From the IMG/VR virus record IMGVR_UViG_3300032116_001500, positions 1-21,616 of that record: 21,616 nt of DNA. One strand, 5' to 3'. Position 1 is the stretch's first letter. Every line of letters starts with the position of its first letter. Below the pieces are notes generated by a model, which saw only the letters and a program-made list of their open reading frames with translations, ran no database searches and was not told the DNA's origin. Positions 2,460 to 20,725 of the stretch are shown piece by piece. Origin of the DNA: a virus. A program made the translations under genes and the position numbers.

Positions 2460-2855
2460 TTATAAGGCTCCCTTCAGAAGTATTTTTGCATCTTCATCAC
2501 TGTAAGATGAGTAAATACGTTCATCATTTATATAGAAACACAAAACACCATTATAAACTTTTTCTTCTCTCTCATACCGAGCATATTCAACCCATTCTCC
2601 AACCTCAACTTCTAAGGCTTTTAATGAAGGATGTGTCTTAAATGCAGTCGGACCAATCTTTAAAACCAAACCCATTGTCTGTAAGACATCATTTCTGGTT
2701 TGACTTTCAATCGGGATATACAATCCAGAAGTTAGTTTCTCTGGCGTTTTAGGGGCCCTTAGCAAAAGTCTGTATCCTTTTACGTCTGGGCTAACTCCTA
2801 TTTCGTTTCTAATAAATTCATCTTTTTCTTCATCTGTTAATTTTTTTTTTGACAT
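2460..2855 (-). CDS. Phage GroES-like co-chaperonin
   Basis: A 131-residue protein whose core follows the GroES (Cpn10) pattern: a first strand GYRLLLRAP, a mobile-loop-like stretch ending in SGLYIP, then GLVLKIGPTAF (the GxVLxVG element), a VEVGEWVEYARYE strand (GroES 'VkvGDxVxf') and the closing strand with YINDERIYSSYSDED. GroES is about 97 residues; the extra length is an N-terminal charged segment and an insertion near the roof loop. Known phage relatives such as T4 gp31 cap host GroEL to fold the capsid protein. Its place between portal and scaffold-like genes fits that job: folding of the capsid protein during head assembly. Start ATG 2855 has GGAAG upstream and lies just after the preceding gene's stop. 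The fold assignment is fairly secure; partner and substrate are inferred. Confidence 0.75.
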   Translation of the reverse strand: MSKKKLTDEEKDEFIRNEIGVSPDVKGYRLLLRAPKTPEKLTSGLYIPIESQTRNDVLQTMGLVLKIGPTAFKTHPSLKALEVEVGEWVEYARYEREEKVYNGVLCFYINDERIYSSYSDEDAKILLKGAL

Positions 2856-4071: not shown

Positions 4072-6585
4072 CTATATATTTTGTGGCTCTTGCTGTTCTG
4101 GCATCATGTTTTGGTGTTGTGTTTCAATTTCTCTAAACAATTGGTCTTTTTCTTTTATGGCTGTATCGAGCGCAACTTTCTTATCATTAATATGTGTCTC
4201 AGCCATACCTTGCTGTATTTTAAAATCAAGCTCTTTCTCTTTAAAGGAAACATCAGACAGCATCTTTTGATAGTCCAATTGTAATTTCTGTTCATCAAGA
4301 GCAAGTTTCTTATTATCAAAGTCAGCTTTCAACTTAATCTGCATTTCATTAACTTGAGTCTCATGAAGCATCGCTTGTGCTTGAATCATTGCAGGATCTG
4401 GTTGAGGTCCTTGTTGATTGGCCTGCATCTCAGCTAATTTCTGCTGAGCTATTTGAGCGGCATGCTGAGCGATTTGATTTGCTTCCTCTGGAGATATTTG
4501 AGAAGGATCTTGTGGAATAGGAGCGCCAATTGAAGTGAATAATTCAACAACTAACTTCTGTGCTTTATGTTCCTGTATATGCGCATTAGCAGCCGCGATA
4601 ACTTCCGGAGGCTGTGTCTGATCAGCCGTAATAAGAGAATGCACTGTAATATGAGCATCATGATCTTGAGGGATTCCAGCAACAACAGGTTTATTAGTTA
4701 AAAGATTCTTGTTCTCAGAGATAGGATCTAACGGTATTGTCGGAGGCGCTTCTTGTGGCTCAGGTAAGACTTTCTTAATCTCATCTTCTGACATATCCAT
4801 ATTAAGGTAATAAATCTTATAAGCTTCTCTTAGATTATGAATCTCTGGATTTTGACGAGCGTTATTGAGAATCAATTCAGATCGAAGTAACCGATAAGAT
4901 GAATTTTGTAAGTTAGGGTCTGTTGACGTAATGATTTGAATGCTGGATTGGAAATCTTTCTTTGCAATAGCATGAGAGCCACCAGGAACTAAAAACGGAT
5001 ACTCTTCATCATTTGGCAGCCATTCAATGAATCGTTCTTTAAACAACTCAAACAATTGCTGCATAGATTTATGATATCCCTGCACCACAAAGTTAGGGAC
5101 TTTCTGATAGCTTTGTAAAATCGCAAGTGCAGGGGAACTGGCTGCATTCGGTAATCTCTCGGCAACATCTTGATTGATAATAGCTGATGGTTTTCTAATA
5201 TTATCCTCAAGTTTATCCTGCATTGCTGCAAGAGCGGCACTTGGTTCACCATACAGTTTATTATTCGTTAGGATAGCCTTGTCGATGTCCATACCGCCTG
5301 TTTGTAGCTTTGTAAATTCACCGATAGCAGGCCTAATGTTATTATCTTCCAAACGTAAGGCTGCTTGATAGAATCCACCAGGGAAACTGGAATACATACC
5401 TGCGGTTAACATCATTCTTAAAATGACAGTCGCTGCATGTGCTTGTTGTCCTGCATAATGAATAAGACCATATCCTTCACCATCAAAAGAAGGCAATAAT
5501 GAGAAGTTAACAAAGAACTTTCTCTTTTCTTTTAAAGGATCGTTTTCTTTCCAATTTCTTTCCCATCGTAATATTTGACCTGAATTTGCGTCCAGATGAA
5601 CAATATAAGCAACTGGAAATGAAAAATCTGCGGCCCTATCGTCCATAGGGACTTTATAATCTACATGAGTTTCATAGATCTTATATTCATTAGAATTTTG
5701 CTTGCTTGTCGAGAAGCTAGAATCAAAACCACTAATCTGATCTAGACTTTCTTTAATAACATTCCCTTGATCCCCTGAAGAATCTGTTGGGATAATACTT
5801 AAATCTCTATATTCCTTTGTAAACTTACGAAGTTCGAACTCATCCTTTGTAATATAATGAACTTGTGTAATCCGAGAAGAGATAAGATGCGAGGATATAT
5901 CTCTATTAACAATAAGATCTTGCGGTTTAATCATCCTAAATGTAGGACGCTTCAAAATAGCATCAATAAAGACTTTCCCAAAGATAGACCCAACGACACA
6001 TGACCAAAAAACAGTCCTTCTTAATTCTTTCTCAAAACCCTCATCAATGTTCTCAATGTAATTATTATAGAACTGTTTCAAGCGATAAGCTCTATCTTCT
6101 AGTTCTTGAGAAGTCTCACCTAAGATAACTGTTGAAGCTGGACCGTTCGGAGGAAGAATGCTCGATATGATTGTAGCTGTGTAATCTAAAGTCGTTTCAA
6201 ACAGCGCAGTAGAATGCACAGTAGGATCGCCTTGATAATCAACGCCACCACCTGCAGCACCGAAATCAGGTGTGATACCCATGATTTCAATAATGTTAGC
6301 AATGTATTGATTTGTTGTTTCTTGCGTCCTTGCATCATCCTCAATGTTTTTCTTAAGATGATGGCCGGCCTCTCTTAAAAAACTATCCGGCAGCCATTCC
6401 GCCATGTTTTCATGATGATTTTGATAGCTCTGAATAGCAGGCATTTCATTAGCGGGAGATTCACCAAATAGAGTGCTTCCGTCTGGAAAGTGTCGGATTC
6501 CATCGTGAGAAACAACCCCTTCCTCTATTTGATCATCTGAATTTCCTAAACCATCATCCATATAATCAAGAGGGAAGTTATTCAT
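4072..6585 (-). CDS. Portal protein (P22 gp1-like)
   Basis: 837 residues, in the size range of podovirus portals (P22: 725) with an extended C-terminus. The protein forms the dodecameric ring at the head vertex through which DNA is packaged and ejected and to which terminase docks. Features include a charged N-terminus, a central alpha/beta region with FWSCVVGSIFGKVFID and a MIKPQDLIVNRDISS segment, typical of P22-type portals, and FVNFSLLPSFDGEGYGLIHYAG about midway. From about residue 690 there is a Gln/Ala/Lys-rich coiled coil, comparable to the portal barrel helix. It lies five bases after the C-terminal terminase gene, with GGTGA before its ATG. Gene order terminase-portal is the usual one. 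I am confident in the family. Confidence 0.9.
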   Translation of the reverse strand: MNNFPLDYMDDGLGNSDDQIEEGVVSHDGIRHFPDGSTLFGESPANEMPAIQSYQNHHENMAEWLPDSFLREAGHHLKKNIEDDARTQETTNQYIANIIEIMGITPDFGAAGGGVDYQGDPTVHSTALFETTLDYTATIISSILPPNGPASTVILGETSQELEDRAYRLKQFYNNYIENIDEGFEKELRRTVFWSCVVGSIFGKVFIDAILKRPTFRMIKPQDLIVNRDISSHLISSRITQVHYITKDEFELRKFTKEYRDLSIIPTDSSGDQGNVIKESLDQISGFDSSFSTSKQNSNEYKIYETHVDYKVPMDDRAADFSFPVAYIVHLDANSGQILRWERNWKENDPLKEKRKFFVNFSLLPSFDGEGYGLIHYAGQQAHAATVILRMMLTAGMYSSFPGGFYQAALRLEDNNIRPAIGEFTKLQTGGMDIDKAILTNNKLYGEPSAALAAMQDKLEDNIRKPSAIINQDVAERLPNAASSPALAILQSYQKVPNFVVQGYHKSMQQLFELFKERFIEWLPNDEEYPFLVPGGSHAIAKKDFQSSIQIITSTDPNLQNSSYRLLRSELILNNARQNPEIHNLREAYKIYYLNMDMSEDEIKKVLPEPQEAPPTIPLDPISENKNLLTNKPVVAGIPQDHDAHITVHSLITADQTQPPEVIAAANAHIQEHKAQKLVVELFTSIGAPIPQDPSQISPEEANQIAQHAAQIAQQKLAEMQANQQGPQPDPAMIQAQAMLHETQVNEMQIKLKADFDNKKLALDEQKLQLDYQKMLSDVSFKEKELDFKIQQGMAETHINDKKVALDTAIKEKDQLFREIETQHQNMMPEQQEPQNI

Positions 6586-6590
6586 TTATG

Positions 6591-7829
6591 TCACCAATTC
6601 TTCTTCTTTTTGAAATTAAATTTCGGATCGTCAGTAGGATCATCAGGATGATAAATAAAACCAGATTGTTTTAGTCTAATAAATGCCTGCGACATAGAGT
6701 CTATTGTATCATTACTTTCACCCTTTGGAAACAAAAGACAATCTTTTATGAGTTGTCTGGAATAATCGTTCGGGTGTTGATGATGAGGTGCTAATGTTGG
6801 CAACCATAAAAGCCCCTTTTCGATAATATCTGTAATGCGTCTGGCTCTTGCTTCTTTAGCTGTCCCACTATAATTCAGACCTGCCTTTGCTGGATTGAAT
6901 CCCATAAGAGGAATGCCAGTACTCATAAGTTCTGAGACAAGAGTATATCCACTTCCCTTAGATTCAATTAGAACTAAGTCACATTTCTTATCTTTTGGCT
7001 TAATAAAAGGATATTCATTATTATAATCATAGTTGCTGGACAGCTCGACGACCTTCTTACGAAGCTCAGGATATTCCAATTTTCCTTTAAATAATGAAAG
7101 AAGCATAACATTAGGGATATCTCGTTGATCTCTAAAGATACCCCATGTTGTGCACGCGCTATAACAAACTGTATCGGGACTCTTAGACGATGTAGCACCG
7201 ACTAATGCTGTGTCCCAAGATTGAAGAATATACTCGAAGGTTGGAAACTCATCAACCTCATAGAAGTTAAACCACTCACGTTTAAATATTCCACCACCGG
7301 GAGGAGAAGGCAACTGCTGCAACTGTCCAGAGATTCTATAAGGATCTCCCCGAAAGTCTTTTTCTTTAATCTCTTGTAGTTCATTTACGTTAATCCAATC
7401 AGGGCATAACAATTCATTCTCTTTTGTTCTCTTATCTTGCCACACTTGATTATTCGACATACGAAGGGGAATTGTCCTACTCTTCATGCTCGGTATGTAT
7501 TCCATAGGCAGAAACAAATGAACCCAAGACGGATCGTTCTTTGCAAGGATATGACCTGATAAATCTTTCTCGTGCGTTCTTTGTTGCATAACAAGACGTC
7601 TGAAGCTGCTGTAAGGAGCAACGAAACGAGAGGACATCACGAAGTCATGCCAGTCATTTGTACCTTCACGAACAACATCGCTTTCCGAATCACGGACCGA
7701 GTTTGGATCATCACAGTTGTGTACGAGAAACTTCATCGCAAAATAATTGTTGTTATCTTTGATCTTTAAGTTATATACTGATTGGTGTTGAAGCGTTTTC
7801 TTTCTGACAGATTTCACTTTTACATTCAT
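6591..7829 (-). CDS. Terminase large subunit, C-terminal part, preceded by split C-intein
   Basis: I chose ATG 7829 because the encoded 412-residue protein then begins exactly with a C-intein: residues 1-38 carry a block F-like VYNLKIKDNNNYFAM and end in block G FLVHN followed by Cys39, the +1 nucleophile. The frame is open to 7898, but those 23 extra residues match no C-intein. After splicing, C39-D40-D41-P continues the terminase Walker B region. The rest is the terminase C-terminal part: a YQQ-like element (SGQLQQLPSP, about 167-176) and the RNase H-fold nuclease with acidic residues D206 (SWDTA), E289 (LIESKG) and D377 (NDTIDSMSQ). The product alone lacks Walker A, so it must be joined to the N-terminal half at 8461-9324. 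No clear ribosome site precedes ATG 7829, and its mRNA must cross the antisense endonuclease gene. Confidence 0.9.
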   Translation of the reverse strand: MNVKVKSVRKKTLQHQSVYNLKIKDNNNYFAMKFLVHNCDDPNSVRDSESDVVREGTNDWHDFVMSSRFVAPYSSFRRLVMQQRTHEKDLSGHILAKNDPSWVHLFLPMEYIPSMKSRTIPLRMSNNQVWQDKRTKENELLCPDWINVNELQEIKEKDFRGDPYRISGQLQQLPSPPGGGIFKREWFNFYEVDEFPTFEYILQSWDTALVGATSSKSPDTVCYSACTTWGIFRDQRDIPNVMLLSLFKGKLEYPELRKKVVELSSNYDYNNEYPFIKPKDKKCDLVLIESKGSGYTLVSELMSTGIPLMGFNPAKAGLNYSGTAKEARARRITDIIEKGLLWLPTLAPHHQHPNDYSRQLIKDCLLFPKGESNDTIDSMSQAFIRLKQSGFIYHPDDPTDDPKFNFKKKKNW

Positions 7830-7852
7830 TAAACTTATACAAGGATTTAAAA

Positions 7853-8515
7853 ATGTACGAATATATACCTCCACGTCATTTACACAAAGTAGGAACAAAG
7901 ATTAACAACATCACTATATTAGATTTCTTTATAGAATCTGGGCAATTAAAAATTCATTATCGATGCGATTGTGGAAATATTAGTAAATGCAAGTTTCATG
8001 TTCCCAGCAAAAGTTGTAAGGAATGCTATTATAAAAGAGCAGGTGAAGGGGGTAGAACTCATGGACTTACAAGATCTCCTGAATATATATGCTGGGACTC
8101 AATGAAACAACGCTGCTTTAATCCAAGATCTAAGCCATTTAAAAATTATGGAGGACGAGGAATAACCGTTTGTGAAAGATGGACAGGACGAGACGGGTTT
8201 ATAAACTTTCTAAATGATATGGGGAAAAGACCTAGTCTAGAATATTCAATAGAGAGAATTAACAATAACGGGAACTATGAGCCTTCTAATTGCAAATGGG
8301 CGACTCAAAAAGAACAATTATCAAACAAGAGACAAGGAGATGGAATATATCGTATCCATAATAAAATTTGTACTATCTGTAAGATTTCGTTTAAAGGGTA
8401 TTATAAAAATTTATATTGCTCAAGATCATGTCAATGCAAAGCATATCAAAAAAGGAAACGTCAAGCTAAACTCAAAACCTCGTCATTTTCTAGAACATCT
8501 TCAGCAGAGATATAA
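7853..8515 (+). CDS. Free-standing HNH-like homing endonuclease inside the fractured terminase gene
   Basis: 220 residues, start ATG 7853 with AAGGA at 7841-7845. Residues 36-60 hold a zinc-ribbon-like set (RCDCG, then CKEC). Residues about 78-160 match the widespread phage HNH-like pattern Y..W..M..RC, NYGGRGI.VCERW, FINFLNDMG.RPS, then SIERINNNGNYEPSNCKWA and a final QLSNKR. A C-terminal zinc finger (C173xxC176 ... C189xxxC193) follows, probably for DNA recognition. It lies between the two split-intein halves of terminase on the opposite strand. Its last 55 bases overlap the N-intein coding end, and its start faces the C-intein start 23 bases away. Such enzymes cut the uninterrupted allele so the insertion spreads by repair. 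A weak promoter (TTGTTA 7750-7755, TATACT 7774-7779) lies upstream. The exact HNH subfamily and cutting activity are inferred. Confidence 0.8.
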   Translation: MYEYIPPRHLHKVGTKINNITILDFFIESGQLKIHYRCDCGNISKCKFHVPSKSCKECYYKRAGEGGRTHGLTRSPEYICWDSMKQRCFNPRSKPFKNYGGRGITVCERWTGRDGFINFLNDMGKRPSLEYSIERINNNGNYEPSNCKWATQKEQLSNKRQGDGIYRIHNKICTICKISFKGYYKNLYCSRSCQCKAYQKRKRQAKLKTSSFSRTSSAEI

Positions 8516-9324
8516 CCCTTACCTTCTATATAGATGGGGTGATTAGGAGTGCACCTTAAAATAGTCCCGTCTTCTAGCTCTATTTCAATAAATTCGTCAG
8601 TCGTATTTTTATGAAACTCTTCAATCTCTTTGAATTCAGTTTGTTGAGTTTCATGATTAAACGATAAAACCTTACAATTAATGCCTTCTTCCACAATCCA
8701 TCCAATTGGATATTCTCCCTGATCTGTCTCAACCATTGTTTCATAGGGAAAACAGATATCAAAATGACCACCTTCACCTGTGTTACCTCCAGACACAGAA
8801 CTAGAGATACGGTATCCGCCTGTCGTGTTTTCAAAGCGAAGTTTGTTATTAACATCGCTCATTAATCTAAAGTCTTGCCCCCATAAAGATTGATACCAGG
8901 GACTTAAGATGAGACGACGTGCGTAAACGCTATCACGAACAGACAGTCCTTCTTTATAAGATGTGTAGAGGAATGAGAGATTAGGGCGCTTTGTCCAAAC
9001 CCAAGGATTAAAGAAAACTGAACCAATGGTGCTCTTACCCACACGAAAAGGACAATTGATAATTAGACGTCTGATTTCTAAATTGCAGAGCGCCTCAAGA
9101 TGTTGACAGATAACCTCAAGATGATAGCTCTTAATAAAGCTTCCGGTACCTCTCGTAGCTTCCCATGCTTTAATGGTGAAGTAATAGAAACTATTCTCAC
9201 ACAACCATTTCTCTTCAATCTGCTGATCATTAAGTTTGCTTTCACTAAACTGATAGAGATTGAGATTAAGTTTTTCTAATTCTTTTTCTAAATTACCACT
9301 GAGAAGCTTAGAGTTTTGTCTCAT
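8461..9324 (-). CDS. Terminase large subunit, N-terminal ATPase part, ending in split N-intein
   Basis: 287 residues from ATG 9324 (a TTG six codons upstream is an alternative; neither has a strong ribosome site, and the start overlaps the preceding gene). Residues 1-190 are the terminase ATPase N-terminal half: RRLIINCPFRVGKST carries the Walker A (C91 to S98), and GGHFDI leads into Walker B. At residue 191 the N-intein begins with Cys1 in block A (CFPYETMVETDQGEYPIG). It runs 97 residues, includes the block B TxxH motif as T259-P-N-H262 and ends in SLA before TGA at 8463..8461. No endonuclease domain or C-intein follows, so this is a true split N-intein. With the 38-residue C-intein the total is 135 residues, a normal mini-intein. 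The joined terminase would be about 564 residues, also normal. ATP hydrolysis by the spliced product would drive DNA packaging into the head. Confidence 0.9.
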   Translation of the reverse strand: MRQNSKLLSGNLEKELEKLNLNLYQFSESKLNDQQIEEKWLCENSFYYFTIKAWEATRGTGSFIKSYHLEVICQHLEALCNLEIRRLIINCPFRVGKSTIGSVFFNPWVWTKRPNLSFLYTSYKEGLSVRDSVYARRLILSPWYQSLWGQDFRLMSDVNNKLRFENTTGGYRISSSVSGGNTGEGGHFDICFPYETMVETDQGEYPIGWIVEEGINCKVLSFNHETQQTEFKEIEEFHKNTTDEFIEIELEDGTILRCTPNHPIYIEGKGYISAEDVLENDEVLSLA

Positions 9325-9508
9325 CTTTTTTAATAAACTCAAGATTCAATTCAGCTAACGCAAAGAGATCATCAAGATCTTTTTCTTCTATTTCTTCATG
9401 AACATTCTTAAAGACTTTAGCTCCAGCATGCTCGTAAGCTAATCGCAAAGCTTTCTCACGAAATTTATAATTTAGTTCCTTACAAGGTGTGTATTTTTTT
9501 TCTGACAT
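9308..9508 (-). CDS. Small hypothetical protein upstream of terminase
   Basis: 66 residues from ATG 9508, which has AAGGT about 8 bases upstream; an ATG at 9523 lies inside the preceding gene and lacks a ribosome site. The product is a charged, helical, Leu/Glu-rich protein (AEHAGAK-type basic middle, acidic second half DLDDLFALAELNLEF). The 3' end overlaps the terminase N-terminal gene by 17 bases, which suggests coupled translation. No motif is recognised. A small terminase or terminase-accessory role is possible from position, but the larger helix-turn-helix protein at 11195-12004 is the better small-subunit candidate. Confidence 0.55.
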   Translation of the reverse strand: MSEKKYTPCKELNYKFREKALRLAYEHAGAKVFKNVHEEIEEKDLDDLFALAELNLEFIKKDETKL

Positions 9509-11194: not shown

Positions 11195-12004
11195 TTATTT
11201 CTTTCCGGCTAGTGTTTGCTTTACATTTTGTGAACGAGTTAACTCTTGCAATTGTTGAAGTTGACTCAATCTTTCTCTATCCTCAATCTTACGCTTCTCT
11301 TGAGCTTCCATAAACTGTCTTTGAGTTTCCTTAAGATTCTCTTGGAAATCAACGGCTGCTATAAAGGCTCTATGCATCTCTAATGCATTCATAAGCTTTT
11401 CACCTGAATCAATATCAAGATCACCCTTAGTTACATAATCAAGAACAATTTCCATCGATTCTTTTAGTTCTTTAGGAGTCTTTGTTTTCAACTGAATAGG
11501 GAATTCATTAATAAATGTCGCAGGACGAGGGGTACTCATTAGATATCGGGCAATTATCTCACATGCCTTATCCTCACCATCGATAGCGCTTCTCCAAACT
11601 CTTTTTACAAACTTCACCATATTTGTATCGTCTTCTTCGACGTCAAGTTCATCTTTCTTTTCAGCCCAATGCAAAAAGATCTTTTTTAGGTTATTTCTCA
11701 CACTTCCATTATAATTTACCCCAGGGATAAAAGTACCATCTGGATTGCGTCCCTCACAAGCATCTACGGGGCGTGGCTCGACTTTGGACTTTTTTGACTT
11801 AGGGGAAATTTCCTCAATTTCTACCTCTTTTTCATCATCACAACAGTTATAAATAGTACCCTCTTTTTTAACATCTTTTTTGTTCTGAAAATAGTTATAG
11901 ATAGCGCTATAAGAGACATTTAATTTCTTAGCGATCTGAGCTGTTGTATAATCATCAGCCTTAAGCTTATCCACTTTTTTATAATCAATTTTTTTAGAAA
12001 CCAT
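11195..12004 (-). CDS. Putative terminase small subunit (helix-turn-helix DNA-binding)
   Basis: 269 residues, first gene of the leftward block, ATG 12004 with AAGGT upstream. Residues about 17-42 form a clear helix-turn-helix (DDYTTAQIAKKLNVSYSAIYNYF). Around 85-100 is the motif GRNPDGTFIPGVNYNG, similar to the 'GRFxPGxSGNPxG' element of phage proteins linked to packaging. The middle is an alpha-helical domain and the C-terminus (about 215-269) a Gln/Glu/Arg-rich coiled coil. A DNA-binding N-terminus plus oligomerising helices at the head of the terminase-portal operon is the layout of small terminases, which recognise phage DNA and recruit the large subunit. A transcription regulator of the operon is the main alternative. 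Confidence 0.55.
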   Translation of the reverse strand: MVSKKIDYKKVDKLKADDYTTAQIAKKLNVSYSAIYNYFQNKKDVKKEGTIYNCCDDEKEVEIEEISPKSKKSKVEPRPVDACEGRNPDGTFIPGVNYNGSVRNNLKKIFLHWAEKKDELDVEEDDTNMVKFVKRVWRSAIDGEDKACEIIARYLMSTPRPATFINEFPIQLKTKTPKELKESMEIVLDYVTKGDLDIDSGEKLMNALEMHRAFIAAVDFQENLKETQRQFMEAQEKRKIEDRERLSQLQQLQELTRSQNVKQTLAGKK

Positions 12005-13326: not shown

Positions 13327-13713
13327 ATGAACGAAGAAATGTTACAAAAAATTATAATTGAAACCATTACAAAAACTATGCTGGTGCAAGAAAAGAAAGA
13401 TGAGCACCCTTATGTAGGTAAATACATTATTGTCAGATCAAATGGGTCTGGTGTGCATGCTGGATATTTAAAATCATATGATTCAGAGACTCAAGAAGTT
13501 TATCTAAAGGACAGTCGTCGTCTATGGTATTGGAAAGGCTTTACTCTTTCTCAATGTGCAAATGAAGGTATGATACCTGATGAACAAGATTCTGCGAAAC
13601 TCTCTCAAATCTTACCAGAAATAATGATTACAAATGTTTTAGAACTTATTCCTTGTACAGAAAAAGCTAGAAACAACATACAAGAACTCCCTGCACATGA
13701 CCCTTACCAGTAA
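13327..13713 (+). CDS. DUF6948-like phage protein
   Basis: 128 residues. After a short helix, residues 27-51 read HPYVGKYIIVRSNGSGVHAGYL, followed by VYLKDSRRLWYWKGFTLSQCANEGM and VLELIPCTEKARNNIQELPAHDP. This order (VGKYVIVR, GVHAGxL, LxDxRRLWYW, LSQxAxxG, IEIIPCTEKA) is the pattern I recall for DUF6948, a phage family of unknown function found next to genes for Gly-rich GDGSGYG-type proteins, which is exactly the case here. The first half looks like a small SH3-like beta barrel, the conserved RRLWYW suggesting a binding face. Starts one base after the preceding stop. The family label needs an HMM search; the similarity itself is clear by eye. Confidence 0.65.
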   Translation: MNEEMLQKIIIETITKTMLVQEKKDEHPYVGKYIIVRSNGSGVHAGYLKSYDSETQEVYLKDSRRLWYWKGFTLSQCANEGMIPDEQDSAKLSQILPEIMITNVLELIPCTEKARNNIQELPAHDPYQ

Positions 13714-13723
13714 GGAGATTCTA

Positions 13724-13924
13724 ATGCAGAATGGAGCTGGTTGCAGAGCTGGCGCCGGCTTTAGTGATGGATCTGGCTTTGGCCGTGGTTCTGGTGATGG
13801 ATCTGGGGTTTGTTCTGGAGATAGTCATATTCGTGGATATGGCTTCACAGATAGCCATGATTGTGGTGATGGGTCTGGATGTTTAGATGGTTCCGGAGAT
13901 TCAGATGGTTCTGGGAATGGATAA
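13724..13924 (+). CDS. Gly/Asp/Ser-rich low-complexity protein 1
   Basis: 66 residues from ATG 13724, which has a perfect AAGGAG at 13712-13717; the upstream ATG at 13697 lies inside the DUF6948-like gene. The protein is built almost wholly from DGSG, GSGDGSG, GYGF and CGDG units, with a few Cys. The pattern suggests a disordered or polyglycine-like extended fold, perhaps metal binding through Asp. It is the first of three tandem relatives. Function unknown; similar proteins occur beside DUF6948-like genes in phages. Confidence 0.6.
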   Translation: MQNGAGCRAGAGFSDGSGFGRGSGDGSGVCSGDSHIRGYGFTDSHDCGDGSGCLDGSGDSDGSGNG

Positions 13925-14162
13925 AAACATGGAAAAAATGGGCTTTAGAAACTTAAAGACGGAAAATATGCAAAGAAACGATGGTGGAGGGAATGTCTCT
14001 GGCGATGGCTATGGTGGTGGCCATGGCGATGGCTGGGGAATTGACGATGGCTCAGGCTATATAACTGGATCTGGCGCCGGCTTTAAGGATGGATCTGGCT
14101 TTGGTTTTGGCTGGGGAGATGGTTATGGCGAGGGAGTTAAAAATGGGGGAGGCTATGGATAA
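13917..14162 (+). CDS. Gly/Asp/Ser-rich low-complexity protein 2
   Basis: 81 residues from ATG 13917, which overlaps the end of protein 1 by 8 bases; downstream ATGs at 13929 and 13938 are alternatives. A normal, charged N-terminus (MDKNMEKMGFRNLKTENMQRND) is followed by GGGNVSGDGYGGGHGDGWG-type repeats to the C-terminus, with aromatic Tyr, Trp and Phe regularly placed between glycines. The three proteins differ in N-terminus but share the repetitive C-terminal part, as after tandem duplication with replaced leaders. Confidence 0.55.
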   Translation: MDKNMEKMGFRNLKTENMQRNDGGGNVSGDGYGGGHGDGWGIDDGSGYITGSGAGFKDGSGFGFGWGDGYGEGVKNGGGYG

Positions 14163-14165
14163 TAT

Positions 14166-14417
14166 ATGAATCCTCTTACAACTATAATGAAAAGAATCCA
14201 AGGAGACAATGATTTGGGCTATCGGTTTGTCTCTGACGATGACTCTAGCTTCAGCTCTTTCTCTAACTCTATTGTTCATGGCGATGGTTGGGGTGATAGT
14301 TATGGCCATGGTTATGGTCATGGAGAAAGTTCGGGATTTGGCCTTAGGTGTGGCTCTGGCGGTGGTTCTGGTACTTCTGATGGTTCTGGATCTGAATATG
14401 GTTTTGGATGTGGATAA
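14166..14417 (+). CDS. Gly/Asp/Ser-rich low-complexity protein 3
   Basis: 83 residues from ATG 14166, with GGAT a few bases upstream. The first 35 residues are ordinary (MNPLTTIMKRIQGDND..., then DDDSSFSSFSNS), the rest is HGDGWGDSYGHGYGHG and GSGGGSGTSDGSGS repeats. It is unlike protein 2 in its N-terminus but alike in the repeat. Hydrophobic frames overlapping this gene are shadows created by the repeated GGT-GAT-TCT codons. Confidence 0.55.
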   Translation: MNPLTTIMKRIQGDNDLGYRFVSDDDSSFSSFSNSIVHGDGWGDSYGHGYGHGESSGFGLRCGSGGGSGTSDGSGSEYGFGCG

Positions 14418-15554: not shown

Positions 15555-16721
15555 ATGAGCTGGACGCATAAAATATCACAAATAAAAATGAGCCAACTTT
15601 CAAGAAATGATAAAGTTTTATTAAGTTTCCTTGCAGGCAAAGCAGATTTCAAAACAGGAAAGAACATTTATGCTAGTACATTAACAATGCATGAAGTTAC
15701 TGAAATTTCCTTAAAAGGCGTATCAATATCCCTTAAGTCACTTATAAAGACAGGAATTATTATTAAGGTTCAAGACAATTACGCAATCAGGAAAACAAGC
15801 GTATATGATTTGAATGTCCCCTTACTTGATGAATGGGAAAAATCAAGCAAAGAATATCTCTCAAAAAAATCCAAAAGATCTAAAAAGATAGAACAAAATA
15901 CAAATGTAATAGCTACAGATGTTAATAATGAAACATGTGTAATAGCTACAGATGTTAACGATAAAACAGATGTAATAGCTACACCTGTTAACGATAAAAC
16001 AGATGTAATAGCTACAGATGTAATAAAAAAACATATGTCATTTTCGCCTCAAACATATGTAATAGCTACGCATAACCTATATAGTACCTATAAATATACT
16101 ACTAGTGCGTGCGCGCGCGAGGCTGTGCCTAAAATTTCATCACACGCTACTTCTGATCAAAATGCCCTAGCTACTACTACTAATTCTCAAAATAAAATTT
16201 TGGCTAAAACAGCCGGTGAATTGCAGGAAGATTTTTCACTAACGAACGAGATGCAGGAAATTGCATTTGCGATGAATTTTCATCCAAGCAAAATACAAGA
16301 AGCTTATCGAGAGACCTGCGACTACTGGAAGGACTCTGGGAACTATCCGAAGAACGTGATTCTTTCTTGGAAGGGAAGTTTGCTTAGGAAGATCAATCAC
16401 GATAAGACCTATTGGACGACGTCTGAGGTTCGCTCACAGCCTGTTGCTGCGTTTAAGAAACAAACACCTCCTCCCGAGCCGGAGCCTATTTCAGTCCCTA
16501 TTCCTGCAGAAGAAGAGCGCAGGGTATTGCATCGAATCATTGGTGACGCAAAGTACAAATCCTGGTTTATTGATTGCCGGATTGTTTTCAAGCGTTCTGG
16601 CGATGAGCTTATGGTGTATTGTCCGAGCTATTTTGTTCGAGATTATTTGGACAATCATTTCAAATCTGCAATTTCGAAGGCTTTTAACTGTGAAAACGTG
16701 GATTTTGCACTTGGAGGATAA
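15555..16721 (+). CDS. Phage replication initiator: winged helix, iteron-coded linker, DnaA domain-I-like C-terminus
   Basis: 388 residues, ATG with CGGAG upstream. Residues about 14-92 form a winged-helix-like DNA-binding domain (LSRNDKVLLSFLAG..., MHEVTEISLKGVSISLKSLIKTGII). Residues 117-172 are a linker of repeated 11-residue units, VIATDVNDKT-like, written by 33-base DNA repeats. About 228-281 resembles the helical module of phage O or DnaT-type proteins (CDYWKDSGNYPKNVILSWKG). After a Pro-rich linker (304-317), residues 322-377 match DnaA domain I: LHRIIGDAKYKSWF then LMVYCPSYFVRDYLDNHF. In DnaA this domain contacts the DnaB helicase. Role inferred: bind its own origin and recruit host helicase. 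Base composition shifts from AT-rich in the first half to visibly richer in GC after about 16250, suggesting a mosaic. Confidence 0.75.
   Translation: MSWTHKISQIKMSQLSRNDKVLLSFLAGKADFKTGKNIYASTLTMHEVTEISLKGVSISLKSLIKTGIIIKVQDNYAIRKTSVYDLNVPLLDEWEKSSKEYLSKKSKRSKKIEQNTNVIATDVNNETCVIATDVNDKTDVIATPVNDKTDVIATDVIKKHMSFSPQTYVIATHNLYSTYKYTTSACAREAVPKISSHATSDQNALATTTNSQNKILAKTAGELQEDFSLTNEMQEIAFAMNFHPSKIQEAYRETCDYWKDSGNYPKNVILSWKGSLLRKINHDKTYWTTSEVRSQPVAAFKKQTPPPEPEPISVPIPAEEERRVLHRIIGDAKYKSWFIDCRIVFKRSGDELMVYCPSYFVRDYLDNHFKSAISKAFNCENVDFALGG
15905..16069 (+). repeat. Five iteron-like repeats within the initiator gene
   Basis: TGTAATAGCTAC occurs at 15905, 15938, 15971, 16004 and 16058. The first four are spaced exactly 33 bases and extend into longer shared sequence (ACAGATGTTAACGATAAAACA). 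The fifth is 54 bases further on. Because the spacing is a multiple of three, the repeats keep the frame. They are followed by an AT-rich stretch (about 16076-16104) and an alternating purine-pyrimidine tract GTGCGTGCGCGCGCG (16105-16119). Lambda-type origins lie inside the O gene in the same position, between the DNA-binding and partner-binding halves. Origin function is inferred. Confidence 0.6.
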
Positions 16722-18826: not shown

Positions 18827-18902
18827 GTGGGGGGGCGGGAATCGAACCCGATATATCTATACACCTAAATGTATAGGGTTTTAACCTTTAAACTACCCCC
18901 CA
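18827..18902 (-). tRNA. tRNA-like element 2 (oversized anticodon arm)
   Basis: Acceptor TGGGGGG/CCCCCCA is perfectly paired. D-arm GTTT/AAAC has an 8-base loop with GG. T-arm has the canonical TTCGATT loop with four G-C pairs and one T-C mismatch at its base. The anticodon arm is again 20 bases (CTATACATTTAGGTGTATAG), pairing as 7 bp with loop TTTAGG or 6 bp with loop ATTTAGGT. Depending on how the loop is read the anticodon could be TAG or TTA, or four bases. No CCA is encoded. It clearly shares ancestry with element 1 (same D-arm and arm plan). It begins one base after a terminator T-run. Confidence 0.5.
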
Positions 18903-19091: not shown

Positions 19092-19165
19092 TGGAGCGGA
19101 AAGACAGAATCGAACTGACATCCTTAGTTTGGAAAACTAACATATTACCATTATACTATTCCCGC
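19092..19165 (-). tRNA. tRNA-Gly (anticodon TCC)
   Basis: Starts GCGGGAATAGT as bacterial tRNA-Gly(UCC) does. Acceptor GCGGGAA/TTTCCGC (one G-T pair), D-arm GTAT/ATAT with loop AATGGTA, anticodon arm TTAGT-TTTCCAA-ACTAA with anticodon TCC (reads GGA), T-arm with loop TTCGATT and one T-T mismatch in the stem, discriminator T and encoded CCA. It reads GGA, a codon used heavily in the Gly-rich genes of this window. A full cloverleaf, probably functional. Confidence 0.9.
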
Positions 19166-19595: not shown

Positions 19596-20021
19596 ATGTG
19601 GAATTCCATAGAGCAACGACATCTTTATCAATATTTATTCTCTATTCCCAATCCCAATCTAAGCAATCATAAAGGCGAGACGAAACTTCACCTAGAGTGT
19701 ATCAATCATATGAAGAGCTGGGCTGTCTCTGGTGAGCTAAAGGCCCTCTGGTTCCACCCTGCCAATGAAACCCTTAAGAAGGGAGATACAGGCTGGGGAA
19801 TGCTTTTAAAGATGATGGGGAAGCTTCCTGGAGTTCCTGATCTTATCTTTCTATGGGACAAGGGAAGTGGCTGTATTGAATTAAAAAGTTCAAAAGGAAG
19901 ATTAACAGAAGAACAAGAAACTTTTAAAAAATGGTGCTGTGAATTTAATATTCCGTATGCTATATGTCGCTCATTAAAAGAAGTTGAAAAAACTTTAAAA
20001 GACTGGAAAGTGTTAAAATGA
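19596..20021 (+). CDS. VRR-NUC domain nuclease
   Basis: 141 residues, about the size of stand-alone phage VRR-NUC proteins. The PD-(D/E)xK core is complete: E29 or E34 in the first helix, GVPDL (D82), IELK (E95, K97), then GRLTEEQ with Q107 and a closing helix. The family includes Holliday-junction and flap nucleases (as in FAN1) and phage enzymes acting on replication or recombination intermediates. ATG 19596 lacks a strong ribosome site. Its stop overlaps the next start by 4 bases (ATGA). With the YqaJ-type exonuclease further on, it suggests a replication/recombination operon. Confidence 0.85.
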   Translation: MWNSIEQRHLYQYLFSIPNPNLSNHKGETKLHLECINHMKSWAVSGELKALWFHPANETLKKGDTGWGMLLKMMGKLPGVPDLIFLWDKGSGCIELKSSKGRLTEEQETFKKWCCEFNIPYAICRSLKEVEKTLKDWKVLK

Positions 20022-20725
20022 CTGATATTAAAAAAGACTCGACGGTGTCCAATCCAGTTAAAATGTCTAAATCTCTTGGAAATGTAATCTCTCCTCATTA
20101 TTTAATTGAAAAATATGGAATGAATGCCGTGCGTTTTTATTTTAATTATGCAGGCCCTGCTCAAAACGATGTAATATTTTCTGAAGAAAATCTTTGTGAA
20201 CTTTACAACTCCATGCTTGCCAACGAATATGGGAATTTAGTGCAAAGAGTTATGGGGCTGGTTTATAAAAACTTTCAGAAAACAAACAATTTTTCAGGAC
20301 AAGAAATAATATGCTCTTATATTCCCTTTTATGAAGAATTAAACAATCAAACATTGTTTTCTTCTCTTAATAAACAAACTTTCGAAAATTTAGATCGATA
20401 CGTAGATGAATTTTCTTTTAAGAAGTATATTGATCTTATTTGGCAAAGTATAAAAAAATCAAATCAATATATTCAAGAAGAAAAACCATGGACTTTAAAA
20501 AATACCGATTCAAAACGTATGGGAACTGTTTTGTATGTTCTTTTAGAAACAATTAAGAGAATTACAATAGCATTACAGCCCATTATCCCTGACGGTTGCA
20601 GTGCAATTTTAAAGAGATTGCATTTAGAGAATGAAATGAAGTTCAATAAAATTGAAGAAATGCTAATTCCAGGAACAATTATAATCCAAGATCTGAATCC
20701 TGTTTTTCCTCGAATTGAAAAATAA
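20018..20725 (+). CDS. Truncated methionyl-tRNA synthetase: KMSKS loop and anticodon-binding domain only
   Basis: 235 residues. After 14 unrelated residues (MTDIKKDSTVSNPV) the protein matches bacterial MetRS from the KMSKS loop to the natural end: KMSKSLGNVISPHYLIEKYGMNAVRFYF, then LANEYGNLVQRVM (MetRS 'LANxLGNLxxR'), KSNQYIQEEKPWTLKN, and a PDG...DLNPVFPRIEK terminus. The HIGH motif and the catalytic Rossmann half are absent, so it cannot aminoacylate alone; it keeps the helical anticodon-binding domain. ATGA overlap with the nuclease gene and an intact frame suggest it is expressed. Possible roles: tRNA-Met binding or decoy, complementation of a split enzyme, or a captured host fragment, perhaps linked to an attachment site. 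None is proven. Confidence 0.85.
   Translation: MTDIKKDSTVSNPVKMSKSLGNVISPHYLIEKYGMNAVRFYFNYAGPAQNDVIFSEENLCELYNSMLANEYGNLVQRVMGLVYKNFQKTNNFSGQEIICSYIPFYEELNNQTLFSSLNKQTFENLDRYVDEFSFKKYIDLIWQSIKKSNQYIQEEKPWTLKNTDSKRMGTVLYVLLETIKRITIALQPIIPDGCSAILKRLHLENEMKFNKIEEMLIPGTIIIQDLNPVFPRIEK

What the first reader, a model, noticed from the sequence alone, without database searches (positions are those of the whole stretch)
6591..9324. Fractured large-terminase gene requiring protein trans-splicing by a split intein
Seen: the minus strand has a terminase N-half that turns at GGHFDI into a Cys1-started N-intein (97 residues, block B TPNH) and stops at 8461; a separate gene starts at 7829 with a 38-residue C-intein ending FLVHN before Cys, then DDPNS and the nuclease half. 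Walker A is on one polypeptide, Walker B and the nuclease on the other. The insertion sits within Walker B, so no packaging ATPase exists until splicing. Known: Dassa and colleagues described 'fractured genes' with split inteins around endonuclease genes; many inteins sit in ATP-binding motifs. Inference: a short natural split intein with possible fast splicing.
Basis: partly seen in the sequence, partly recalled or inferred. Interest (0 to 1): 0.9.

Follow-up and report, generated by a model that had tools for sequence, protein, structure and literature searches.

The report
Phage packaging-motor gene split by intein
This phage encodes its DNA-packaging motor as two separate proteins that must be stitched together by a two-part protein-splicing element, with a selfish DNA-cutting gene lying backwards between them; it is a clear new example of a rare but already described arrangement.

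Summary
On the minus strand an N-half of the large terminase (TerL; 190 residues with Walker A) runs into a 97-residue N-intein and stops at 8461. A second gene starts at 7829 with a 38-residue C-intein, followed by the Walker B acids and the nuclease. The key class 1 splicing residues are present. Eighty-seven related terminase records are uninterrupted at this point, and the closest (50-58% identical) join exactly at I190/C191. Three IMG/VR records share an identical fractured gene while differing by SNPs in the flanks, so it is not an assembly error. The N-intein is strongly acidic (-18) and the C-intein basic (+7), whereas related one-piece inteins are near neutral; this fits an intein adapted to working in two pieces. 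Best explanation: protein trans-splicing of TerL by a naturally split intein created or maintained by an HNH invader. This is Dassa-type 'fractured gene' biology. Split TerL inteins (AceL-TerL, GOS-TerL) and inteins in TerL Walker B are known. It is a new member of a known kind; the antisense endonuclease is the unusual feature. Splicing is inferred; 'fast splicing' has no support.

The parts
8755..9324 (-). TerL N-extein (190 aa, Walker A), first part of the N-half gene 9324-8461
   Evidence: PHROG_38 TerL positions 247-405, E 1.3e-20; 55-63% identical to uninterrupted TerL records
9028..9054 (-). Walker A / P-loop (CPFRVGKST, residues 91-99)
   Evidence: read from sequence; G96 K97 S98 invariant in alignment A2
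8461..8754 (-). N-intein (97 aa, Cys1, block B TPNH) and stop codon
   Evidence: TIGR01445 E 2.7e-10; NrdJ-1 and Npu DnaE intein matches; net charge -18
7853..8515 (+). HNH homing-endonuclease gene, antisense to terL, between the intein halves; its 3' end overlaps the N-intein 3' end by 55 nt
   Evidence: PHROG_374 HNH endonuclease E 2.6e-41, PHROG_3377 1.5e-37; conserved HNH-family motif aligned with other viral copies
7841..7846 (+). AAGGAT Shine-Dalgarno-like site of the HNH gene
   Evidence: sequence upstream of ATG 7853
7716..7829 (-). C-intein (38 aa, block F VYNL..NYFA, block G FLVHN), start of the C-half gene
   Evidence: Pfam Intein_splicing positions 119-155, E 2.2e-4, below Pfam cut-off; PDB intein match; net charge +7
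6591..7715 (-). TerL C-extein (Cys+1, Walker B acids DD, nuclease) and stop codon
   Evidence: PHROG_38 positions 408-707, E 1.7e-33; TIGR01630 2.6e-6, below its cut-off
7707..7712 (-). Walker B acidic pair DD, directly after Cys+1
   Evidence: invariant in alignments A1 and A4
4072..6585 (-). portal protein gene next to terL (context)
   Evidence: PHROG_1216 portal E 2.8e-10
11195..12004 (-). possible small terminase gene (context, weak)
   Evidence: PHROG_309 E 6.8e-4

Best explanation
The phage large-terminase gene is fractured into two genes by a naturally split class 1 intein at the Walker B strand of the ATPase. The two proteins associate through an acidic N-intein and a basic C-intein. 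The intein then excises itself (N-S shift at Cys1, transfer to Cys+1, Asn cyclisation after His) and joins I190 to C191 to give a 564-residue TerL. An HNH homing-endonuclease gene, encoded on the opposite strand between the two intein halves, is the likely agent that broke a one-piece intein and may still promote homing of the whole cassette into intact terL genes. Shown: anatomy, homology, exact junction, identical structure in three records. Inferred: trans-splicing, the need for it before packaging, homing, and how the C-half is translated.
For: Intein signatures on both halves. TerL halves abut in PHROG_38. Eighty-seven non-duplicate related records are uninterrupted here; the nearest join with no residue gained or lost and several carry the native Cys at +1. 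The fractured sequence is identical in three records with 6 and 11 flanking SNPs, nearly all synonymous, and no indels. In IMG/VR the uninterrupted junction DNA pattern hits only the 51%-identical clade, and the FLVHN-CDDP junction occurs only in the fractured records. Charges -18 / +7, against -3..+4 and -2..0 in six related one-piece inteins; shuffling the residues gives a C-part of +7 or more in 1.7e-4 of trials. The HNH gene is a strong family match. The VYN block F variant also occurs in related inteins L139 and L140. An uninterrupted relative folds like T4 gp17 and the HK97 terminase.
Against: No splicing data. The C-half ATG at 7829 has no clear Shine-Dalgarno sequence, and promoter-like sites are no more frequent than in shuffles. 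Block F has Asn for the usual Asp. The charge control set is small. No related split copy outside this strain cluster was found, so selection on the intein cannot be measured.
Confidence: 0.92

Rival explanations
1. The two halves work together as separate subunits without being joined, the intein pieces serving only as a docking clamp.
For: The split separates the P-loop from the nuclease, and charged intein pieces would dock.
Against: The catalytic splicing residues are kept: Cys1, TPNH, penultimate His, Asn, Cys+1. The break lies inside the Walker B strand, a poor place for a two-chain interface.
Confidence: 0.03
2. RNA splicing or another readout removes the middle and makes one continuous protein.
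For: Introns do occur in phage terL, for example in ICP1 (PMC10448857).
Against: No group I or II intron model matches. The intein halves would be redundant. The N-intein ends in a stop and the C-intein begins with ATG.
Confidence: 0.02
3. A decaying terminase in a defective phage or phage-plasmid remnant.
For: Host-symbiont plasmids carry related terminases, and the one on the Bealeia plasmid appears broken.
Against: Both halves are fully open, SNPs in the flanking genes are almost all synonymous, and the charge pattern suggests adaptation to being split.
Confidence: 0.02
4. An assembly chimera or sequencing error.
For: The window is a metagenomic contig.
Against: Three records from separate samples agree base for base over 6576-9421.
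Confidence: 0.01

Closest known systems
'Fractured genes' with split inteins and a free-standing endonuclease gene (Dassa et al. 2009; paper not held here, content recalled)
   Same: A conserved enzyme gene is broken by a split intein with an endonuclease gene between the halves, in phage-like DNA.
   Different: Gene is TerL and the nuclease is HNH type on the opposite strand. Whether any of the Dassa loci is antisense could not be checked. In the two comparators examined, MIJ3 PolB and KP13-7 NrdA, the nuclease genes run in the sense direction.
AceL-TerL and GOS-TerL natural split inteins (PMC11766414)
   Same: Naturally split inteins in a metagenomic phage terminase, both with Cys+1.
   Different: Those are atypically split (25/104 and 37/115 residues); this one is split at the usual place (97/38).
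Mycobacteriophage TerL inteins, site TerL1-e in Walker B (PMC5050341)
   Same: An intein in the Walker B motif of TerL; a representative was shown to splice.
   Different: One-piece inteins in cis.
Streptococcus phage GXN1 TerL (PQ819873)
   Same: Walker-B-region split intein separating the P-loop half (VGFDVF|C) from the DE and nuclease half (VSHN|CALMDE).
   Different: Halves lie about 58 kb apart; unannotated there; different terminase lineage, inserted about three residues earlier.
Helicase inteins at the DE|CH Walker B site in viral contigs (L136, L138-L140)
   Same: Best N-intein relatives in IMG/VR (36-42% identity, CF.YET.V-type start), also in a Walker B motif before Cys.
   Different: One-piece, 265-366 residues where measured, in SNF2/SF2 helicases.

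Membership tests
Class 1 intein | Cys or Ser at position 1 | tested here: met
   Cys1, codon 8754-8752
Class 1 intein | Block B T-x-x-H | tested here: met
   RCTPNH; aligns with relatives
Class 1 intein | Penultimate His and terminal Asn, then Cys/Ser/Thr at +1 | tested here: met
   FLVHN then Cys
Class 1 intein | Block F Asp, usual but not universal (so not used as an exclusion) | tested here: not met
   VYN instead of VYD; the same variant occurs in inteins L139 and L140
Class 1 intein | Catalyses splicing | not testable with these tools
   needs expression
Naturally split intein | N and C parts in separate open frames, each fused to one half of the same host protein | tested here: met
Fractured gene | Endonuclease gene between the intein halves | tested here: met
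   HNH gene 7853-8515, on the opposite strand
Large terminase | Walker A, Walker B and RNase H-like nuclease | tested here: met
   PHROG_38; Foldseek of uninterrupted relative to T4 gp17, HK97 and G20c nuclease
HNH homing endonuclease | Conserved HNH-family motif | tested here: met
   PHROG_374 E 2.6e-41; motif shared with seven viral copies
HNH homing endonuclease | Cuts the empty terL allele and drives homing | not testable with these tools
   needs a cleavage assay
Atypical TerL split inteins (AceL, GOS) | Short N-part of about 25-37 residues | tested here: not met
   N-part is 97 residues

The most novel reading that the evidence does not exclude
The antisense endonuclease is more than a passenger: transcription of the HNH gene opposes the terL read-through needed to make the C-half, so the selfish gene times when the packaging motor can be assembled. 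It would be the first fractured gene known to have a head-on endonuclease and a possible packaging-timing switch.
Probability: 0.1. Interest if true: 0.65.

Novelty: new member of a known kind. Interest (0 to 1): 0.45.

Why it matters
It gives a clean natural case in which an essential phage motor cannot exist until two proteins splice, with dozens of intact relatives defining the exact junction. It supports the idea that split inteins arise when homing-endonuclease genes land inside one-piece inteins, here apparently backwards, and it offers a new, strongly charge-paired 97/38 split intein for protein-joining tools.

Tried and rejected
Searched for a group I or II intron in the gap: none. Looked for a continuous frame across the gap: 14-15 stops per frame. 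Searched IMG/VR for a close empty allele by protein and by degenerate junction DNA: only the 50-58% identical clade. Searched IMG/VR for other split copies of this intein: only one-piece relatives. Checked other viral HNH relatives for flanking inteins: no convincing match. A scan of genome contigs with the N-intein gave one short weak match. A five-intein alignment was too diverse to scan with. Considered that VYN in block F marks a dead intein; rejected because relatives have it too. 'Fast splicing' has no evidence. Dassa 2009 is not held, so its loci could not be compared for orientation. A search for host relatives is not possible for a virus record.

Full report
What is there. The window is an IMG/VR virus record of 21,616 bases. 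On the minus strand lies a head-gene cluster: portal (4072-6585), terL in two pieces (6591-9324), and upstream a possible small terminase (11195-12004, weak). The first terL piece (9324-8461) gives 190 residues of TerL with Walker A, then changes at GGHFDI into CFPYETMVET..., a 97-residue N-intein, and stops. The second piece (7829-6591) starts with a 38-residue C-intein ending FLVHN and continues as CDDPNS..., the Walker B acids and the nuclease. The intein is recognised by TIGR01445 (2.7e-10) and, below Pfam's cut-off, by Intein_splicing on both halves; the joined intein matches NrdJ-1 in the PDB (2.5e-13). PHROG_38 aligns to the N-half at 247-405 and the C-half at 408-707.

The junction. 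Relatives found in IMG/VR and the phage collection let the join be tested. After removing duplicate loci I count 91 records with the N-terminal region: 87 uninterrupted, one with a one-piece intein (L047), and three fractured (the window and two near-identical records). In the nearest clade the last N-extein base directly precedes the first C-extein base, reading GGHFEI-CDDPNN or GGHFEI-TDDPNN. The uninterrupted relative L005 was modelled (mean pLDDT 68) and Foldseek finds PhiV-1, HK97 and T4 large terminases. In that model the junction is before the last residue of the strand that leads into the DD pair, i.e. inside Walker B; confidence in that part of the model is low.

Not an artefact. The two further records match the window over 9.0 and 9.5 kb at 99.9% with no indels. 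They differ at 6 and 11 sites, all but one synonymous, and are identical from 6576 to 9421. No Rfam intron is found, and each minus frame in the gap has 14-15 stops.

The gene between. Its 3' end overlaps the N-intein 3' end by 55 nt, and its start codon lies 23 nt from the divergent C-half start. It occupies the place where one-piece inteins carry their in-frame endonuclease domain, but backwards. In MIJ3 PolB and KP13-7 NrdA the intervening nuclease genes run with the host gene. Antisense endonuclease genes are known in group I introns of nuclear rDNA (PMC9548176, title), so the orientation has a parallel in another element.

Adapted to being split. The N-intein carries net charge -18 and the C-intein +7, while six related one-piece inteins are near zero in both parts. 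Dealing the same residues at random gives a C-part of +7 or more with frequency 1.7e-4. Opposite charges on the two pieces are a known property of natural split inteins such as Npu DnaE (own knowledge). This argues against a recently broken gene. The best IMG/VR relatives of the N-intein are one-piece inteins in the DE|CH Walker B motif of SF2/SNF2 helicases (36-42% identity); in the phage collection the best local match is the N-intein of the split NrdA of phage KP13-7 (39%). Those scans used short patterns, so the ancestry remains a suggestion.

Mechanism. Trans-splicing is the best explanation. Cys1, TPNH, HN and Cys+1 are present; block F has VYN where VYD is usual, as in inteins L139 and L140. 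How the C-half is expressed is open: its ATG lacks a clear Shine-Dalgarno sequence and promoter-like sites do not exceed shuffled expectation, so read-through of the late operon against the HNH gene is assumed.

Known or new. Natural split inteins in TerL (AceL-TerL, GOS-TerL; PMC11766414) and one-piece inteins in the TerL Walker B motif (PMC5050341) are described. A split PolB intein with an HNH gene between is described in MIJ3 (PMC6892783). The general arrangement is that of Dassa et al. 2009, which could not be read. I also found an unannotated split-intein TerL in Streptococcus phage GXN1, with halves about 58 kb apart. The case is therefore a new member of a known kind with one unusual feature.

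Host. Terminase relatives on plasmids of Candidatus Megaera (Rickettsiales) and Candidatus Bealeia (Holosporales), and in Roseobacter and Pelagibacter phages, suggest an alphaproteobacterial host; this is an inference.

Noticed in passing
L127 and L130 (Streptococcus phage GXN1, PQ819873, about 61.2-62.1 kb and 122.6-125.5 kb): TerL is split by an intein near Walker B with halves about 58 kb apart, and a second split intein with a Vsr-like nuclease region lies in the nuclease part; unannotated in the record.
   Followed up: partly
L114 (Klebsiella phage KP13-7, OP617745): nrdA is broken by two apparent split inteins with GIY-YIG-like and HNH-like genes between, all on one strand; the pieces are mostly annotated as hypothetical.
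   Followed up: partly
L047 from base 2099: A one-piece intein of 328 aa in TerL a few residues upstream of the window's site; the spliced product would have one residue more than related terminases.
   Followed up: no
window 20018-20725 (+): C-terminal part of a methionyl-tRNA synthetase (KMSKS motif to anticodon-binding domain) without the N-terminal half; a host gene fragment, possibly an integration scar.
   Followed up: no
window 18827-18902 and 19092-19165 (-): Two tRNA genes, one tRNA-Gly(TCC) and one for which ARAGORN reports a four-base anticodon (ttag).
   Followed up: no
window 13697-14417 (+): Gly/Asp/Ser-rich repetitive coding sequence open in overlapping frames.
   Followed up: no
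window 2460-2855 (-): GroES-like co-chaperonin (Pfam Cpn10, E 9.5e-6) among the structural genes.
   Followed up: no
window 15555-16721 (+): Replication protein with a DnaA N-terminal domain; a DnaA-like gene also lies upstream of terL on a Candidatus Megaera plasmid (L150), hinting at phage-plasmid relatives.
   Followed up: partly
L133 (Candidatus Bealeia plasmid): A related terminase appears broken into fragments annotated as two hypothetical proteins; no intein was looked for in detail.
   Followed up: no
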